Positions 23,063 to 31,446 of a stretch of DNA of 64,000 nucleotides are shown in pieces. Origin of the DNA: Xanthomonas euvesicatoria pv. euvesicatoria. Lineage in GTDB: Bacteria; Pseudomonadota; Gammaproteobacteria; Xanthomonadales; Xanthomonadaceae. Numbering within the stretch: the first letter of the stretch is position 1; each line of letters starts with the position of its first letter. Location: assembly GCF_020880415.1 (NCBI RefSeq), contig NZ_JAJIUJ010000119.1:62001-126000 (forward strand), written 5' to 3'. A model generated the notes under the pieces. The model did not search any database. It was not told where the DNA came from and saw nothing but the letters and a program-made list of their open reading frames with translations. A program made the position numbers and the translations under genes.

Positions 23063-23206
23063 ATGGATCGGTTCGACGCCATGCGGTTGTTCGTGCGGAT
23101 CGTGGAGCGGCGCAGCTTCACTGCAGCGGCCAACGACATGGAAATTCCGCGCTCCACCGCCACCAAGGTCATCGCCGAGATGGAAGCGCGCCTGGGCGTG
23201 CGCCTA
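23063..23206 (+). pseudogene. LysR-family regulator remnant (helix-turn-helix only)
   Basis: The first 48 codons are an ordinary LysR DNA-binding domain (MDRFDAMRLFVRIVERRSF, then RSTATKVIAEMEARLGVRL) with AAGGAG before the ATG. After the Leu codon the sequence stops resembling the family: it reads GTQARSWADIRHVA and runs to an unrelated stop. The wing end and the whole effector domain are missing and no second half is present in the window. The break marks the left edge of the accessory region. Confidence 0.8.
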
Positions 23207-24058
23207 GGCACGCAGGCACGCAGCTGGGCAGACATCAGGCACGTAGCACTGCGAACATCGCCAGATAGCAGACACAGGCAACGCACTGGTGGTCTCGCAG
23301 CATCTGCCGTATCGTGCTGCAACCAGACTTGTGCGGTCAACTTAATCGGCCTAGCGCCGCCTCGCCGCCATGTGGATGGCGAGGGAGGTCACGCGCATGG
23401 CTACCAACGAGAAAACCGGACCTAAAGCGAAAAAGGCTGCAAGCAAGCGTCGGACAAGAAAAAAAAGAAGTAATTAAGCGAGCGCTGCATAAATCGGTGG
23501 AGGTGTTCGACCAAGCATGAGCGCCTCTTACCCAAGTGATTTCAACGCGTGCAATCGCAGCGGATCACATCATTGGCACAAAATGTCGGGTACCCCACTG
23601 ACAAAACCCCTAAATAACGGTAGGGTGCAAACTAGAACGGGGGTTTCATGCATGGAAAGCAGATGCGGAAGTACCGGGTTCGCGGCTGTGCGGTCATTAT
23701 CATGGCCGCCTGGATACGCTGTGGGTGTTGACACTGCGGTCGCCCTCATTGACGGCGTGTCTTGGGTCCTGTCACAGCCGCCTCACATAAGGATTCAATC
23801 AAGGAACCCCCGCAGCATTCGCCCGCGTCTATCGGATGATGCTGGGCTTTTAGTGATAAGTCGCGCCAGCCTAAATGTGGGCAGATACCAGTTGCGTAAT
23901 CTGATGAACCCCTTTACCGCACTAGCCGTCAAGGCTGGCACCAATTTGATCTATTGCCGGGCAGGTCCTCGTGCCGTACCTTGGTGCAGTCCAACAAATG
24001 GACGCCAGCAAGTTAGAGCCAGTGTATTAGCACTGATGCTTATTTCAACTGACAGATT
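23207..24058. other. Junction region between LysR remnant and AT-rich island
   Basis: About 850 bp of mixed composition. No protein family is recognised; longer frames read like chance translation. A possible 26-codon gene is listed separately at 23397-23477. The base composition drifts from GC-rich to AT-rich towards 24058. No insertion-sequence ends or direct repeats were obvious by eye. Confidence 0.45.
23397..23477 (+). CDS. Possible 26-residue basic small protein
   Basis: ATG preceded by GAGGGAGG at a spacing of 8, a strong ribosome site. The product starts MATNEKTGPKAKKAASKRR and ends in a Lys/Arg run before TAA. Small Xanthomonas hypotheticals that start MATNEKT exist and are longer, so this may be a truncated copy of one. 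Coding status is uncertain. Confidence 0.3.
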   Translation: MATNEKTGPKAKKAASKRRTRKKRSN

Positions 24059-24121
24059 ATGAATTATGGGATCGCACCGGAGCCCATACTCCAAAATTTC
24101 CGCAATTCTGCGTATATAACT

Positions 24122-24133
24122 GGGGGGGGGGGG
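24122..24133 (+). repeat. Homopolymeric G12 tract before/inside the ATPase gene
   Basis: Twelve consecutive G, directly before the ATG at 24134 and in frame with an upstream ATG at 24059. Loss of one G puts the upstream frame into a stop at 24216-24218; gain of one G gives a stop at 24169-24171. Such tracts are classic sites of slipped-strand phase variation and also of sequencing error. Confidence 0.9.
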
Positions 24134-25699
24134 ATGGCATACCGAGAAAGTCAAGCCGACAAAGGACTTAGAGCCTGGTTTATTAGTGATAATACAAAAG
24201 CGCTGCTGCGGGGCATAAAGTTAATAAAAGGGTCTATAAGAGGAATTAACTCTCTAGACATCGAGTTTCATTATCCAATAGCTGCATTTGCAGGCGTAAA
24301 TGGAGCGGGTAAGTCAACAATCCTTGCTCTTGCTTCTTGCGCTTTTCATAATAACCCCGGCGGTTATAAGCTAAAAAAAAGGCAAACAACTTATTACACA
24401 TTTAAAGACTTCTTCGTACAACACTCGGACGAAATTGCGCCGGACGGTATTGAGATAAGGTATGAAATAGCACACAACAATTGGAAAAAAACTGATGCTG
24501 TTCCCAGCGGTGTAGGTGTGGCTGCACAGTCCAGAGTAAAGAAGAAAGGGGGGAAATGGAATGATTACGATAAAAGAATAAAAAGAGATGTGGTTTTTCT
24601 AGGGATCGAACGAATTGTTCCTCATAGCGAGCGAAGTCAATCAAAGTCTTACTCACGATCTTTCAAGGATGCGCCACTTAAAGGCTGGGAAGCGAAAGTT
24701 AAAGAAGCAGTAGGGACTATTTTAAATAAAAAATATGATGATTTTAGATATCTAGAGCATTCAAAATACAACTTGCCTCTGGTTAAATGCGGCCCTCTTA
24801 TCTACTCCGGGTTCAATATGGGAGCTGGGGAAAACGCATTATTCGAAATATTCTCGATAATTTATTCATGCAATAAGGGCGCGCTACTAGTCATGGATGA
24901 AGCCGAACTCGGACTTCATGCTAAAGCACAGCGTTTATTCATAAAGAAGCTAAAAGATGTGTGTGTAGAAATGAATTTGCAGGTAATATGCACAACGCAC
25001 TCTCGAGAAATATTTGATTGTTTACCTGAAGATGCGAGATTCTTCGTCGAAGCAGTCGGCGGAAAAACCCGCATTACAAGTGGAGTCTCATCCGAGTTTG
25101 CCTTCTCAAAGCTTAGTGGGGCAAAAAACGGTGAATTAGATATTTTCGTAGAAGACCCCGTTGCCCATTGCCTAATACTTTCATCGCTACCAGCTACACT
25201 GAGATCAAGAGTGAGCGTACAGATAATAGGATCAGCAACTGCCATCTCAAGGCAACTTGCAGCTCATTATGTTAGAAAAGATGCTAGGCCAGTTTTAGCA
25301 ATATTCGATGGAGATCAGCGAAGTAAGTATGCTGAAAATTTAAAGCATGCGCGAAATATGGCGGAAAATCCTAAAGCTGATTTCGACGAATGGTTTACCA
25401 GCCGATGTGCGTTTCTACCAGGTGAAACTTGGCCCGAAGCGTGGGTTATTCAGAAGTGCCTAGACACCAGTGTCCTAGAAAAAGTTTCTGAATCTCTATT
25501 GTTAGATGCTGATGAGGTAACAGATATCCTTGAGTACGGACTGCAAGCAGGTAAGCATGACGAATTTCACGAAGTTGCCAGCCACATAGGATTAAACAGC
25601 TCTCAGTGTATGTCTAAGTTATGTGATACGGTCACACATTCTTTTTCCTCTGATTTTGAAGAAATTAAAAAAGCCATCTTGATTTTGTTATCAAAATAG
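24134..25699 (+). CDS. OLD-like ATPase with C-terminal TOPRIM-like domain
   Basis: 521 residues from ATG 24134; an in-frame ATG at 24059 would add 25 residues across the G12 tract. Neither start has a normal ribosome site. ABC/SMC-type ATPase: Walker A GVNGAGKST at 54-62, signature-like NMGAGENAL at 228-236, Walker B LLVMDEAE at 251-258 and switch His289 in CTTHSRE. Downstream, E340 in IFVEDPVAH, then GSATAIS, then FDGD at 391-394 match the acidic pattern of an OLD-family TOPRIM nuclease. OLD proteins and relatives (Gabija, PARIS-type ATPases) act in phage defence. Gene is AT-rich, unlike its surroundings, and converges on a PP2C/kinase pair. Confidence 0.8.
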   Translation: MAYRESQADKGLRAWFISDNTKALLRGIKLIKGSIRGINSLDIEFHYPIAAFAGVNGAGKSTILALASCAFHNNPGGYKLKKRQTTYYTFKDFFVQHSDEIAPDGIEIRYEIAHNNWKKTDAVPSGVGVAAQSRVKKKGGKWNDYDKRIKRDVVFLGIERIVPHSERSQSKSYSRSFKDAPLKGWEAKVKEAVGTILNKKYDDFRYLEHSKYNLPLVKCGPLIYSGFNMGAGENALFEIFSIIYSCNKGALLVMDEAELGLHAKAQRLFIKKLKDVCVEMNLQVICTTHSREIFDCLPEDARFFVEAVGGKTRITSGVSSEFAFSKLSGAKNGELDIFVEDPVAHCLILSSLPATLRSRVSVQIIGSATAISRQLAAHYVRKDARPVLAIFDGDQRSKYAENLKHARNMAENPKADFDEWFTSRCAFLPGETWPEAWVIQKCLDTSVLEKVSESLLLDADEVTDILEYGLQAGKHDEFHEVASHIGLNSSQCMSKLCDTVTHSFSSDFEEIKKAILILLSK

Positions 25700-25746
25700 G
25701 AGAAGGGCCGTTGAAGCAAGGTGCGCAAACGAGTGAATAAAAGTGA

Positions 25747-25763
25747 AAACAAGGCTCTTGTTT
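25747..25763. terminator. Weak AT-rich hairpin between convergent genes
   Basis: AAACAAG (25747-25753), loop GCT, CTTGTTT (25757-25763). A few T follow on both strands. It lies between the ATPase and PP2C stops and could terminate both. Stem energy is low. Confidence 0.3.
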
Positions 25764-25852
25764 GGCAGAATGAATGTCTCGATCTGTTCAGCCATCTTAT
25801 GCGTACACCAATGAGATACTGAATTAAAATATATTGTAGGGAATCCTTGAGA

Positions 25853-26623
25853 TCAAAAAAGTCGGTCTTGAATAGCATCTTTGCTTGTAAGAACAAATTT
25901 TCCACAAACTAACGTTTGGTCGTCTGTCGCACCCGAACGATCAATCCGTCTTTTTAGGGCACTTGAAAATCGCGTGGGTGAAGCTAGAGTAGATATCGAA
26001 AATTGCGGTCTTGATGTCCAGAAGCGGTGTGCACCGTCGGACATAAGAAATATCTCGACCCCTGTTAAATCGCCCAAAGCGTAATGTGGTATGAATATAT
26101 CTTCAAAATTTGGTTCGATCCTACTGGATAAAGCGCTTGTTAATATGTTTTCTCCAGAATGATTTTTTAGTTCTCTTTTTGTGTAAATCCCTTGATCAAA
26201 TAAGTTTTGATGCTGCGTATGGTCCTTAGTAATCTGAATCAATTTATTGTTCGATCTTAGATAGGCGCGGCTATCTCCAACATGGCCTATCAACAAACCC
26301 TTATCTGATAAGTGGCAGAAGGTTAAAGTAGTTGCAGCATCTTTCAATGCTGGCTTCGCTTCTGAAATTCGCGATATCTCTTCGCGACAATCGCGCATTA
26401 TGTTCGAAACAATTAAACCGTCTGAAGGTTGAGTCTTAATCTCCGAGAGGTAACGTATTACAGCCCGTGATGCCAATTCGGCACCAGAATAAGAGCCAAC
26501 GCCATCCGCAACTGCCATAATGTATCCGGAACCAAGTTTCCTTGGAAGTAGCCAAGAATCTTGATTGACTCCACCCTGATTCTTCGGATGACTAAATCCA
26601 CCGCATTCAATTAATTTGGTCAT
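25853..26623 (-). CDS. PP2C-type Ser/Thr protein phosphatase
   Basis: 256 residues with all metal-binding signatures: D22 in NQDSW, D40-G41 in AVADGVGSYSG, GHVGDSRAYL around D117, MSDGAHRFW with D196, and the final TDDQT with D235. This is a compact stand-alone PP2C (Stp-like) without membrane segments. It starts 6 bp after the stop of a Ser/Thr kinase gene, so the two form one operon that phosphorylates and dephosphorylates a common target. It converges on the OLD-like ATPase gene. AT-rich composition shows recent transfer. No vWA protein (as in TerY-P triads) is present. Confidence 0.9.
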   Translation of the reverse strand: MTKLIECGGFSHPKNQGGVNQDSWLLPRKLGSGYIMAVADGVGSYSGAELASRAVIRYLSEIKTQPSDGLIVSNIMRDCREEISRISEAKPALKDAATTLTFCHLSDKGLLIGHVGDSRAYLRSNNKLIQITKDHTQHQNLFDQGIYTKRELKNHSGENILTSALSSRIEPNFEDIFIPHYALGDLTGVEIFLMSDGAHRFWTSRPQFSISTLASPTRFSSALKRRIDRSGATDDQTLVCGKFVLTSKDAIQDRLF

Positions 26624-26629
26624 TTAAAT

Positions 26630-27385
26630 TTATACCGCGATGGCGACGAGATCTTCATAAATCGCTTGAGCACTATCGTATCTTAAGTTTGGCCTTCGAT
26701 GAGTGCATTTATCGATAATCTTCCTCAGCGCTGGGGTTTCCGAAGGATTTAAATCTTCGAATACCACGCCCATAGAGAAAATATCTGACTTCACGGAAAA
26801 ATCCCAAGCAGACTGCGTTTCCGGCGCCATGTATTTTTCGGTCCCCCAACCCAAGACAATCTTCGTTAACAAGTTACTTTCGCCTGCGGGGTCTGTGTTC
26901 TTCGCAAGACCAAAGTCAGATATCTTGTAAACTGGGCCCAATGGTGAGTCGAATTTCAGTATATTCCTCGGTTTGATGTCACGATGCAATAAATTTCGTG
27001 AATGCATATAATGAATTCCCTGGAGGGTCATCTTCATTATTCTGATTTTCTCGCTATCCGATAAGCTGTTGTTGCTTATTTCATACTGAAGGTCGCATGT
27101 AGCTAGATCCATAAGGAACCAAGGTTCCTGGATCTTATCGTTATACATATATATCTGCGCGATATTTTCGTGTGCACAGGATGCTTGGTAGCGAACCTCG
27201 CGTGAAAAACGAGAGAGAAGCTCCTCATCGTGATCTTGGTCGGGGGGCGAAAATGTTTTGATAGCGTACTCACCGCATTTGTGGTTCGCGTTATTAAATA
27301 GGTCGACGGCTTGGACGATACCAAATCCGCCTTTGCCAATAACCCTCGTAGGGACTATTCGATAATTTGAGTGGTCTATGCTCAA
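26630..27385 (-). CDS. Stand-alone Hanks-type Ser/Thr protein kinase
   Basis: 251 residues from TTG 27385, chosen because AGAGGAAG lies four bases before it and because the frame upstream of it runs over the end of the next gene and reads as chance sequence. Kinase motifs are all present: glycine loop GKGGFGIV (17-24), Lys43 in YAIKTF, Glu63 in the C helix, HRDIKPRN (134-141), DFG (157-159) and APE (187-189). The C-lobe is short and there is no transmembrane or sensor domain. It is followed after 6 bp by the PP2C gene. Its substrate is unknown; the ATPase next door is a natural candidate. Confidence 0.9.
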   Translation of the reverse strand: MSIDHSNYRIVPTRVIGKGGFGIVQAVDLFNNANHKCGEYAIKTFSPPDQDHDEELLSRFSREVRYQASCAHENIAQIYMYNDKIQEPWFLMDLATCDLQYEISNNSLSDSEKIRIMKMTLQGIHYMHSRNLLHRDIKPRNILKFDSPLGPVYKISDFGLAKNTDPAGESNLLTKIVLGWGTEKYMAPETQSAWDFSVKSDIFSMGVVFEDLNPSETPALRKIIDKCTHRRPNLRYDSAQAIYEDLVAIAV

Positions 27386-27423
27386 CGTTCTTCCTCTGTC
27401 CAAAATAACGGGGTCAGGTTTAC

Positions 27424-27873
27424 TTACCCACCCAAACACCGCTGCCACCCACCGGCAGGAGCCGCCACCTGCTCCCATCCATTGCGCAGCCGCTTCATCG
27501 CTTGCCCGCCCACGCATGCATAACCCAGCTGCTTGGCTTCTGCAGTGCCAAGACCCGGCAATGTGATGACGGAGTCCGATGGGGCAGGGCGCCCCTGACG
27601 TTGCGCTTCATTGCGCAGCATCATGTTCTCGACGCCTTGGCAGTAACGCACCATGCCCGGATGCGGGTGCGTGCGGTATTGCTCGCAGTTGAAGGGCGTG
27701 GTGTCGTGCGCCATCGAGTTATACGGCTGTTGCGTTGGCGCAATGTACTTGCTTGTTGCCGTGCCGGTGGCCGAGCGCATGCCTTGTGCATGCGCCGGCT
27801 GCACGTATGCCGCGCCACACAGCACTGACGTTGCCAGCACGAGGCATCGCGCGATGGTGGTGATCCTGTCCAT
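27424..27873 (-). CDS. Secreted hypothetical protein
   Basis: 149 residues. A signal peptide is clear (MDRITTIARCLVLATSVLCGAAYV with an AHA-Q cleavage site near 30). The mature part has three cysteines, among them FNCEQY, MVRYCQGV and LGYACVGG plus a final WQRCLGG, which suggests disulfides in the periplasm. Family not recognised. Base composition is GC-rich like the chromosome, so the AT-rich island ends just before its stop. It is transcribed in the same direction as the kinase gene and could share a transcript with it. Confidence 0.65.
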   Translation of the reverse strand: MDRITTIARCLVLATSVLCGAAYVQPAHAQGMRSATGTATSKYIAPTQQPYNSMAHDTTPFNCEQYRTHPHPGMVRYCQGVENMMLRNEAQRQGRPAPSDSVITLPGLGTAEAKQLGYACVGGQAMKRLRNGWEQVAAPAGGWQRCLGG

Positions 27874-28618: not shown

Positions 28619-30505
28619 CTAGCGGGACAGGCTGCCCTGGTTAGGCTCGTTCATTCCACGCGCCAGCTCTTGCTGCTGCGTCAGCGCCCTTTCCTGCGCA
28701 ATGGCTTGGTTGGCCGCCAGGAGTTTCTGGTCCGACTGTTCCACCGGGGTGCGGATTGCCTGGTCGATCTCCACGTGCACCCGCCTGTGCGCTGGGTCAT
28801 CCAGCCGCCCTTCTACCGCAAACACGTTGCCGGTCTTGCCCATCACAACATGGTCCACGCGGCTCAACGCATTGTCTGCCAGCGAGCGATCCCCTGCAGC
28901 CGGGTAGGCCTCGCGGTTGTCCTTGCACACCGCCAGCAGGCTACGGCTGACGCGCTCGCTCATGTCGTCGTACGGCTTGCCCACGCTTTCGTCGATCTTG
29001 CGGACGCCACTGCGAATCTGCTCCAGCATGCGGTGATCCGGGTGCGCAGGATCGTCCGGCCCGAGCGAGCCCGTTGCAGCAGGCGCACTGGGCACAACCG
29101 GAACATAGGTATGGTCGTGCGCGGGATTCACGCTTCCATCCTGGGTATGGTCGAAATGATGCAGCGTGGGCGGCCGGGTACTTGTGTCCTGATACGGAAA
29201 CGGTGACTTGTTGACGCCTCGGTCCAGCCCTTCGTTCTCGATCAAATGTTCTTTGAGCCCCAGCGCTGCCATATCGATGGTCACTTGCGGCCGGGCACCT
29301 TGATACATCACGTTCGCGCGATCTTCGGCTTGCAGGATCTGCTCTATTCCCCAGGTGCCATAGTAGTTGGGGTAGTCTGCTGTCGGTTGAAGAGCACCCA
29401 TCGCATTGCGATGCTCGCCAATGCCTACCGGACGTTGACCAGGCTGCGAGTAAAGCGGAGAGGGTCGATCAAAATAATGATGACCCATCGCCGCAATGTT
29501 TCCTGACGTCTGAGAAAGGCTCCCGTCCTGATTGAAAGTCAAACCTTGCTTTCCGGCGGCAACGCCCGTTAAAGGATTTGTCGTGACAAAGTCATTAACC
29601 CTATCAATCTGCGTTGCCTGCATTGCTTTGAGGCCTGCATGCGGATTGATACGCTGTTGCTGACTCAGCAATGCGTTCCAGCCTGCGATCTCTGCTTTTG
29701 CTTCGTCCTCACGTCCGGCCTGTATGTAAGCCCGGAGCTCGTCTGTGTAGTCATGTATGGGGCCTCGCACCTTTGACTGAGCTTCGACATCGGATAGAAA
29801 TTTCTGTGTCGCCTGCGCCTTAGATGCATGATTAAAGCTATGCTGGATCTCGTGTCCCAACACAAATGTCATGTCTCTATCATTAAACCTGCCATGTAGG
29901 TTGGTGGCCGAGCTACTTTGAAGACCCAGCGGCGGCAAGTTCATGATCTTGTTGCCACCATCGTAGGTACCGCCAGCCGCCATGCCTGGCCCAAGGAAAC
30001 CAAAAGCCTCGAGTTGTGCTCTCTTGGGGCGTTGTCCATCCGATTGGTCAATTGTGGTGGCTGCCTTTTTGACTTCATCAGCCAAAAACGGCGAGCCATT
30101 GATGGTGGACTGCAAATTGTCGACCATATCTTGCGTCACAGGATGGCTAGTTCTTGCAGCGTCCTGGTAAGCGCTGCGTGCAAACGCTATAGACATCTGC
30201 TGAACTTGAAGACTGGCTCTTAGATCACTGTTTGCTACAGTCCCTGTAGATTGAATTCCTATTGCGGGAAGGGTAACGACCCCGCTCTGTATGTTGTAGG
30301 TTCCGGTAAGATTAGGTGTCGAACTGTTAGCCGCCTGTAGTGCGAAGCCCCGAAGATGGCCTGCTATTGCTTCCTGATCGAACTGCTGCATTAGTTTAGG
30401 ATCAGCAACCAGCGCTCCGCGCAACTGCGCTACCTGATCTTGACTGGCTCCGGATGCAGCAAAGCTGGCAAGAGCTGCTTCGAGTTGCGGGCTAGGCGTT
30501 GCCAT
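28619..30505 (-). CDS. Type IV secretion bacterial-killing effector (X-Tfe) with XVIPCD and metallopeptidase-like domain
   Basis: 628 residues. The C-terminal region (about 483-628) is the XVIPCD signal of X-Tfes: GPDDPAHPDHRMLEQIR, then GDRSLADNALSRVDHV, then GNVFAVEGRLDDPAHRRVHV, and a Gln-rich tail. This signal docks effectors on VirD4 of the antibacterial type IV system. The N-terminal half has HEIQH at 218-222 in FVLGHEIQHSFNH, a gluzincin-type zinc peptidase motif, with further acidic residues (DELRAYIQ) that could give the third ligand. So the toxin is probably a protease or peptidase acting in the target periplasm. The lipoprotein gene 16 bp upstream is the expected immunity gene. GC lower than neighbours. 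Confidence 0.88.
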   Translation of the reverse strand: MATPSPQLEAALASFAASGASQDQVAQLRGALVADPKLMQQFDQEAIAGHLRGFALQAANSSTPNLTGTYNIQSGVVTLPAIGIQSTGTVANSDLRASLQVQQMSIAFARSAYQDAARTSHPVTQDMVDNLQSTINGSPFLADEVKKAATTIDQSDGQRPKRAQLEAFGFLGPGMAAGGTYDGGNKIMNLPPLGLQSSSATNLHGRFNDRDMTFVLGHEIQHSFNHASKAQATQKFLSDVEAQSKVRGPIHDYTDELRAYIQAGREDEAKAEIAGWNALLSQQQRINPHAGLKAMQATQIDRVNDFVTTNPLTGVAAGKQGLTFNQDGSLSQTSGNIAAMGHHYFDRPSPLYSQPGQRPVGIGEHRNAMGALQPTADYPNYYGTWGIEQILQAEDRANVMYQGARPQVTIDMAALGLKEHLIENEGLDRGVNKSPFPYQDTSTRPPTLHHFDHTQDGSVNPAHDHTYVPVVPSAPAATGSLGPDDPAHPDHRMLEQIRSGVRKIDESVGKPYDDMSERVSRSLLAVCKDNREAYPAAGDRSLADNALSRVDHVVMGKTGNVFAVEGRLDDPAHRRVHVEIDQAIRTPVEQSDQKLLAANQAIAQERALTQQQELARGMNEPNQGSLSR

Positions 30506-30521
30506 CAGCTTCCATCCTTGG

Positions 30522-31169
30522 TTAGTTCAACGTTCCAATTGATTTAACACATAGCCTGCCGGGAGAACCAGGCGCTTCATTTTGGGGGACAAGCGAGATC
30601 ACAATATCGTTTCCGCTTCCGTCGTTGGCCAACTTAGCAAATCGCCAGCTTTGTAACTGGCCAATTTCACCATGCACGGGCGAATCCAAAAATCCCATCT
30701 CAATAAGCGAATCTCTGTATTTCTCAAAGTCGACGCAATTACCTTGAAGACTTGAAGATCCTTCATCTTCGTTGACAAAAGACAGGCCAATGCCCTGCTT
30801 GAGAGCGCGAGACTCGGGAGTAAGCTCCAATAAGTAGCTCCAGCCGTTACTAAGCGCTTGGCCGTGGATATACGACTCAAGACCCTCAGAGGGGAAGGAA
30901 ACCTTCTTCAGAGAAATGCCAGTAACTTCGCGGACCCGATCGATTGTCAGATCTTTCCTGGAGTCCAAACCTCCCAGCAGTTTCAGAAATCTTTCACCAA
31001 TCTCAACAGCGCTAAGCGTAGGGTTGACCGTTGAAGTATTAGGCGTTGTCATTGCGCGCGGCTCTTTTGGAAGTGGCGAAATTGGGTTGCCGGGCGTATG
31101 TGCGCATGCACATAGCGAAGTTATGCAGAGAATGCCAACCGAAAACATTGCAACCTTGCTGAGTCTCAT
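30522..31169 (-). CDS. Putative X-Tfi immunity lipoprotein
   Basis: 215 residues from the ATG of MRLSKVAMFSVGI. The signal peptide ends in a lipobox (SLCAC, cleavage before the second Cys), so the mature protein is a periplasmic lipoprotein. The mature domain (EIGERFLKLLGGLDSRKDLT, then WRFAKLANDGSGNDIVISL) matches no family I know. Position immediately upstream of an XVIPCD effector, with 16 bp between, is how X-Tfi immunity genes are arranged. It would neutralise the metallopeptidase toxin if it leaks into the periplasm of a sister cell. An open frame extends upstream to 31412 but lacks a ribosome site. Confidence 0.75.
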   Translation of the reverse strand: MRLSKVAMFSVGILCITSLCACAHTPGNPISPLPKEPRAMTTPNTSTVNPTLSAVEIGERFLKLLGGLDSRKDLTIDRVREVTGISLKKVSFPSEGLESYIHGQALSNGWSYLLELTPESRALKQGIGLSFVNEDEGSSSLQGNCVDFEKYRDSLIEMGFLDSPVHGEIGQLQSWRFAKLANDGSGNDIVISLVPQNEAPGSPGRLCVKSIGTLN

Positions 31170-31446
31170 AAGCGATCCGTACACGTAGGCAGACCATCGT
31201 ACTTTAGCGATGTCAGACTCAGGGTCATCTGGGCGTAGGTATTCGATTGTGCCACTATTATTAAAGAGCACGTGACGCAGTGCCAGGCTGGTGTCACACG
31301 TACCTTCTCGATTTTTTCTAAATAACGCCACGGCCTGGGATTGGGATTGGGATGATCTGTGCAGCGACCCTGCTTGTGTCACACTGCCTGCCGCTTTCTG
31401 CCGGTCTTCCATTACCTACATTCCGGGAGATGCTTCAACGCCAGCG

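What the first reader, a model, noticed from the sequence alone, without database searches (positions are those of the whole stretch)
24059..27420. AT-rich island pairing an OLD-like ATPase/TOPRIM protein with a convergent Ser/Thr kinase and PP2C phosphatase
Three genes with AT-rich codon use sit in GC-rich Xanthomonas DNA next to a broken LysR gene. The kinase (all Hanks motifs) and PP2C (all metal Asp) are 6 bp apart; the ATPase has Walker A/B and OLD-type acidic TOPRIM residues. OLD relatives are known phage-defence enzymes, and kinase-phosphatase pairs occur in TerY-P modules, but here the vWA partner is missing. A kinase/PP2C switch gating an OLD-like nuclease would be a new design. The functional link is inference from proximity.
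Basis: partly seen in the sequence, partly recalled or inferred. Interest (0 to 1): 0.78.

Follow-up and report, generated by a model that had tools for sequence, protein, structure and literature searches.

The report
Two neighbouring phage-defence modules
An AT-rich patch in this bacterial genome carries two separate, probably virus-fighting modules, a single ATPase-nuclease-like gene of a known kind and a kinase-phosphatase gene pair, which look like neighbours rather than one machine.

Summary
The three genes are real and look intact. Corrected bounds: ATPase-TOPRIM 24134-25699 (+), PP2C 25853-26623 (-), Ser/Thr kinase 26630-27385 (-, TTG start). The foreign patch runs from about 23847 to 27411, inside a type IV secretion effector array.

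The proposed single machine is not supported. The ATPase is a HEC-04/IbfA-type OLD-like protein (PADLOC 9e-47). None of 21 close homologue loci has the kinase or PP2C in the DNA held (one side unseen in five). The kinase-PP2C pair is a coupled two-gene module of prophages and plasmids: 1 of 188 pair loci (many contigs counted twice) carries a HEC-04 piece, a truncated start in Pseudomonas, and 0 of 21 pair-bearing genomes has a HEC-04 relative at E<=1e-10.

The pair resembles KKP (kinase-kinase-phosphatase, an anti-phage toxin-antitoxin module) but fails its definition: one bare kinase, no FHA or CSD domain, kinase first, shorter genes. My reading is a minimal KKP-like module, kinase as toxin and PP2C as antitoxin. 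Gene-decay asymmetry hints at this; no experiment exists. Seven literature searches aimed at the pair found no two-gene version described.

The parts
24134..25699 (+). HEC-04/IbfA-type OLD-like ATPase-TOPRIM gene, 521 aa
   Evidence: PADLOC HEC-04 9.1e-47 over 52-540 of the 546-aa frame; start set by homologues; model's best PDB match is OLD nuclease 6p74
24122..24133 (+). run of 12 G directly before the ATPase start codon, possible slippage site
   Evidence: only G or C run of 7 or more in the 64 kb; 10-G matches: 3 overlapping found, 0.14 expected; at most 5 G in a row in the 45 bases before the start of 17 homologues
25853..26623 (-). PP2C-type Ser/Thr phosphatase, 256 aa, proposed antitoxin
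   Evidence: Pfam PP2C_2 5e-18; 38-48% identity to nine other pair PP2Cs
26630..27385 (-). minimal Ser/Thr protein kinase, 251 aa, TTG start, proposed toxin
   Evidence: Pfam Pkinase 1.4e-36; 34-45% identity to nine other pair kinases
23847..27411 (.). foreign AT-rich patch holding both modules; borders approximate
   Evidence: in 5 of 7 relatives' regions (L239-L243) the long right-hand matches start at 27412-27417 (a short one in L243 at 27403); three of them match on the left up to 23730-23846; no tRNA in the window, no flanking duplication, no integrase among the 7 neighbouring frames scanned

Best explanation
Two independent mobile defence modules landed next to each other in a cargo-rich stretch. 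Module 1 is a HEC-04/IbfA-type defence gene: an ABC-type ATPase fused to an OLD-like TOPRIM domain, which probably acts on nucleic acid when it senses infection. Module 2 is a kinase-PP2C pair that works like a stripped-down KKP system. In the resting cell the phosphatase keeps the kinase or its substrates dephosphorylated; a phage product that disables the phosphatase lets the kinase phosphorylate essential host proteins and stops growth before the phage multiplies. Shown here: gene content, domain identity, coupling of the pair, separate occurrence of the two modules. Inferred: antiphage activity, toxin/antitoxin roles, trigger.
For: ATPase: PADLOC HEC-04 9e-47, and HEC-04 is the best model for the 4 relatives scanned too. 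AT-rich (GC 0.40-0.45) in 8 Pseudomonas loci and present in viral contigs; 0 of 21 close loci with kinase/PP2C. A paper reports IbfA as limiting a phage and cites HEC-04 as protecting against T4 and T5 (PMC12111858, passages read). Pair: kinase directly before PP2C, commonest arrangement a 4-base overlap (127 gene pairs), both genes intact in 159 of 178 genome and viral loci. On plasmids, in phages and in prophage-like contigs without HEC-04. KKP shows that a PP2C can be the antitoxin of prophage kinases (PMC11341870; abstract, sections 8, 9, 10, 29 and passages). Decay asymmetry: among 101 PP2C-found loci 11 have a partial or absent kinase with intact PP2C, and 1 an absent kinase with partial PP2C; among 80 kinase-found loci 5 have a partial kinase with intact PP2C, 3 a partial PP2C with intact kinase (two of these run off the contig end), none lacks the PP2C.
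Against: L030 has a HEC-04 start 24 bp behind the PP2C, so the two have met at least twice, more than blind chance suggests. The decay asymmetry rests on few events: the two sets share contigs (L124/L279, L183/L305, L177), some loci are near-duplicates, some may be sequencing errors or contig edges (L136; L177 uncertain), and each scan ranks intact copies of its own query higher. PP2C without kinase exists (L042, L043, L170). 4 of 8 Pseudomonas HEC-04 genes have other AT-rich frames beside them that I did not identify (L205, L206, L211, L212), so a partner is not excluded there. [quoted passage not shown] coli ybjD, a lone OLD protein, says its Toprim domain is dispensable (PMC13261556, abstract in listing only). 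No experiment on either module of this genome.
Confidence: 0.65

Rival explanations
1. One three-gene system: the kinase/PP2C switch phosphorylates and gates the HEC-04 nuclease.
For: Adjacent in the window; a truncated HEC-04 directly behind the PP2C in L030, in a different orientation.
Against: 0 of 21 close HEC-04 loci have the pair; 187 of 188 pair loci lack HEC-04; 0 of 21 pair genomes have a relative at E<=1e-10; no pair-type kinase in 9 HEC-04 genomes. Convergent, so not one operon.
Confidence: 0.06
2. The kinase-PP2C pair is a prophage regulator (lysogeny control or superinfection immunity by phosphorylating a host silencer) and only incidentally a defence; the copy here is a relic carried away from a prophage.
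For: 80 pair loci come from a collection of viral contigs, and the pair sits near Q, lysis or terminase genes in phiES15, Flotzy and a prophage-like part of an Ewingella plasmid. KKP in Pf6 does both jobs (PMC11341870).
Against: Also on small Acinetobacter plasmids, once directly behind an ATPase/HNH pair that looks like Septu, and in surroundings that do not look phage-like by eye (L046).
Confidence: 0.2
3. The pair is an ordinary signalling pair (PknB/Stp1-like housekeeping) captured by mobile DNA with no defence role.
For: PP2C and kinase match Stp1 and PknB models at superfamily level.
Against: No PASTA domain in Pfam; bit scores 102 and 112 against cut-offs 230 and 450; patchy distribution: kinase at E<=1e-30 only in the window's own genome among 369 sampled in the class.
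Confidence: 0.09

Closest known systems
HEC-04 / IbfA (ABC ATPase fused to TOPRIM)
   Same: Nearly full-length profile match, same domain order, on mobile DNA
   Different: This sub-branch (members 44-60% identical to the window protein) is only 24-28% identical to the 40 best plasmid relatives listed; function untested
OLD family nucleases, Gabija GajA, Septu/retron PtuA
   Same: Fold and ATPase motifs (Foldseek 6p74, 8u7i, 8eea)
   Different: No GajB or PtuB partner seen among the neighbouring frames scanned with Pfam
KKP (PfkA-PfkB-PfpC, Guo et al. 2024, PMC11341870)
   Same: Mobile kinase/PP2C module with adjacent genes, often prophage-borne
   Different: One kinase instead of two, no FHA or CSD domain, kinase first, genes of about 0.75 kb instead of 0.9-1.3 kb
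Stk2, PD-T4-6, mad6 defence kinases
   Same: Kinase-domain similarity (PADLOC 8e-44 mad6, 6e-38 PD-T4-6)
   Different: Those models are longer (292-659 positions); here the kinase is bare and paired with PP2C
TerY-P
   Same: Kinase plus PP2C (recalled)
   Different: No vWA domain among the 7 neighbouring reading frames scanned

Membership tests
HEC-04 | near full-length match to the PADLOC HEC-04 model | tested here: met
   9.1e-47, model 29-485 of 494
HEC-04 | ABC ATPase fused to a TOPRIM domain | tested here: met
   Walker residues plus E340, D392, D394 invariant; Foldseek match to OLD 6p74 across the model, at low TM
HEC-04 | can stand as a single gene | tested here: met
   21 of 21 close loci without kinase/PP2C in the DNA held; the only AT-rich frame shown between GC-richer neighbours in L207-L210 and L333, L335; other partners not scored
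HEC-04 | antiphage activity | not testable with these tools
   needs phage challenge
KKP | two kinases and one PP2C | tested here: not met
   one kinase in the window; the 8 of 188 pair loci with more than one kinase ORF are split, broken or duplicated kinases (7 loci, 5 contigs) or an unrelated kinase (L157)
KKP | CSD on PfkA and FHA on PfkB | tested here: not met
   kinase families only in Pfam; 251 aa
KKP | order PP2C-kinase-kinase, genes 900-1300 bp | tested here: not met
   kinase then PP2C, 756 and 771 bp (definition)
KKP | kinase toxic, PP2C antitoxic | tested here: inconclusive
   decay asymmetry only
TerY-P | vWA partner (recalled) | tested here: not met
   no vWA match in the 7 neighbouring frames scanned

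The most novel reading that the evidence does not exclude
HEC-04 nucleases were recruited at least twice, in this genome and in Pseudomonas sp. GD03858, as the effector of a minimal kinase/PP2C switch, giving a modular defence in which a portable phosphorylation sensor is plugged onto different effectors.
Probability: 0.06. Interest if true: 0.8.

Novelty: new variant of a known kind. Interest (0 to 1): 0.4.

Why it matters
The trio itself is probably ordinary clustering of cargo. The kinase-PP2C pair is the part worth keeping: a two-gene mobile module (71 clusters at 90% identity among 178 loci) that resembles KKP but with one bare kinase. If it works as a toxin-antitoxin defence, it would be a smaller set for phosphorylation-based immunity than KKP, and a clean test of whether KKP's second kinase and its FHA and CSD domains are needed.

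Tried and rejected
Single-machine reading: rejected on co-occurrence. KKP membership: rejected on architecture. I could not fetch a KKP kinase to place the pair on a tree; the second kinase in L157 has no PP2C-kinase-kinase triplet around it. HEC-04 in 'phages': no match at E<=1e-5. Kinase in a class-wide sample: only the own genome of 369 at E<=1e-30. PADLOC HEC-04 in 369 class genomes: 3, the own one included. One search carried the tool's warning that an empty answer without a positive control shows nothing. Promoter and terminator scans were near chance. No flanking duplication. Of the plasmid hits I fetched 8 of the first 12 rows, passing over three near-duplicates and one 27% match. The viral scans keep the best 80 of 107 and of 167. 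Flanks: 139 of 188 pair loci hold at least 2 kb on both sides.

Full report
What is there. Homologue alignments move two starts: the ATPase begins at ATG 24134 (most homologues begin MKYRES where the window has MAYRES), and the kinase at TTG 27385. PP2C is 25853-26623 and kinase 26630-27385, both on the minus strand, 6 bp apart; the ATPase is on the plus strand and converges on them. Their GC is 0.411-0.443 against 0.647 for the window.

Where it sits. I compared the window with seven regions from same-genus genomes. On the right, the long matches start at 27412-27417 in five (L239-L243; a short match in L243 starts at 27403) and at 27547 and 27504 in the other two. On the left, the LysR gene is broken at 23203-23205 in the three regions that match it. 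The stretch 23232-23846 matches another part of the effector cluster in three. The gene at 28619-30505 carries the X-Tfe XVIPCD domain (Pfam PF20410, 1.8e-24). So the patch of about 3.6 kb lies inside an effector array. There is no tRNA in the window, no flanking duplication, and no integrase among the 7 neighbouring frames scanned.

The ATPase. Its best PADLOC model is HEC-04 (9.1e-47, nearly full length). HEC-04 is the best model for three close relatives and for a relative on a conjugative E. coli plasmid too. An AlphaFold model (mean pLDDT 80, pTM 0.60) has OLD nuclease 6p74 as best PDB match (E 3e-14, 569 alignment columns); the global TM-score is low (0.32, rmsd 18.9), so the domains may be oriented differently. 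E340, D392 and D394 are invariant in 10 aligned members. A 2025 paper on IbfA says HEC-04 is an ABC ATPase fused to TOPRIM that protects E. coli against T4 and T5 but not T7 or lambda, and reports that ibfA limits phage UAB_Phi20; [quoted passage not shown] passages read). The HEC-04 preprint itself was not seen.

The pair. PP2C and kinase relatives were aligned and sought in plasmids, phages, GTDB genomes and IMG/VR. I examined 188 loci (8 plasmid, 2 phage, 21 genome and 157 viral, the last with many contigs counted twice). Of the 178 genome and viral loci, 159 have both genes intact (89 of 101 PP2C-found, 72 of 80 kinase-found, two counted in both), and they fall into 71 clusters at 90% identity. 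The commonest arrangement is a 4-base overlap of kinase stop and PP2C start (127 gene pairs). The pair lies between Q and lysis genes in phiES15, between spanin and terminase genes in Flotzy, on small Acinetobacter plasmids (in the last the kinase is broken), and once directly behind an ATPase/HNH gene pair that looks like Septu.

Do they belong together? From the ATPase side, 0 of 21 close loci (8 Pseudomonas, 12 viral, 1 same-genus) has a pair-type kinase or PP2C in the DNA held. In five of them one side is nearly or wholly unseen because the contig ends (L188, L192, L213, L333, L336), and seven viral ones are much alike (L188-L192, L337, L338). Four of the 8 Pseudomonas genes have other, unidentified AT-rich frames beside them. 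A kinase search in nine HEC-04 genomes gave only three 28-30% matches, in open frames of more than 1000 codons. From the pair side, 2 of 188 loci hit the HEC-04 profile: L022, a weak hit (32 bits) to the Septu-like ATPase, and L030. In L030 the first about 45 residues of a HEC-04 gene start 24 bp behind the PP2C and then run into unrelated sequence. None of 21 pair-bearing genomes has a HEC-04 match at E<=1e-10 (the L030 fragment is too short to score, and the tool warns about empty answers without a positive control). The two modules therefore mostly travel separately; the L030 case shows that they have met at least twice.

How the pair may work. KKP is a prophage module in which two kinases are jointly toxic, PP2C is the antitoxin, and a T4 protein that inhibits the PP2C triggers defence (PMC11341870; abstract, sections 8, 9, 10 and 29 and passages read). 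The window pair lacks the second kinase and the FHA and CSD domains, has the reverse order and shorter genes, so it is not a KKP by that paper's definition. That paper's search kept only triplets with genes of 900-1300 bp (section 29), so this pair would have been excluded. Decay asymmetry fits a toxic kinase: in the PP2C-found set 11 loci have a damaged or missing kinase beside an intact PP2C and none the reverse (1 has both damaged); in the kinase-found set it is 5 against 3, two of the 3 cut by contig ends. The sets share contigs and each favours intact copies of its query, so this is suggestive only.

Literature. Seven searches were aimed at the pair (two searches returned nothing and 64 nothing useful) and three at HEC-04. 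They found the KKP and IbfA papers and no paper on a two-gene kinase-PP2C defence module. The library holds open-licence papers only and few preprints.

Verdict. Observation confirmed; the single-machine interpretation is unlikely (0.06). The ATPase is a new member of a known family, and the pair is a new variant of a known kind.

Noticed in passing
window 24122-24133: Run of 12 G abutting the ATPase start codon, the only G or C run of 7 or more in the 64 kb, with at most 5 G in a row upstream of 17 homologues; slippage could tune or switch the gene.
   Followed up: partly
window 28619-31412: X-Tfe XVIPCD effector gene (PF20410) followed by a lipoprotein-like gene without Pfam match that could be its immunity protein; the patch sits in this effector array.
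   Followed up: partly
L030 10784-10981: Start of a HEC-04 gene 24 bp behind the pair's PP2C in Pseudomonas sp. GD03858, cut short by unrelated sequence.
   Followed up: partly
L188-L192, L337, L338 from 8001: HEC-04 directly behind an integrase-like frame of P2-like prophages (recognised by eye), a likely cargo site.
   Followed up: no
L022 5746-7841; L023 3217-5113: ATPase plus HNH gene pair that looks like Septu near the kinase-PP2C pair on an Acinetobacter and a Vibrio plasmid.
   Followed up: no
L309 1-1431: Kinase gene of a pair with an internal duplication and frame breaks, PP2C intact.
   Followed up: no
L157 4236-5252: A second, different 338-aa kinase with a C-terminal extension about 2.5 kb upstream of a pair whose kinase is truncated.
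   Followed up: no
L213 1731-2567: Mrr-like restriction endonuclease (recognised by eye) directly upstream of the HEC-04 gene in a same-genus genome.
   Followed up: no
L205, L206, L211, L212: Unidentified AT-rich reading frames beside the HEC-04 gene in four Pseudomonas loci.
   Followed up: no
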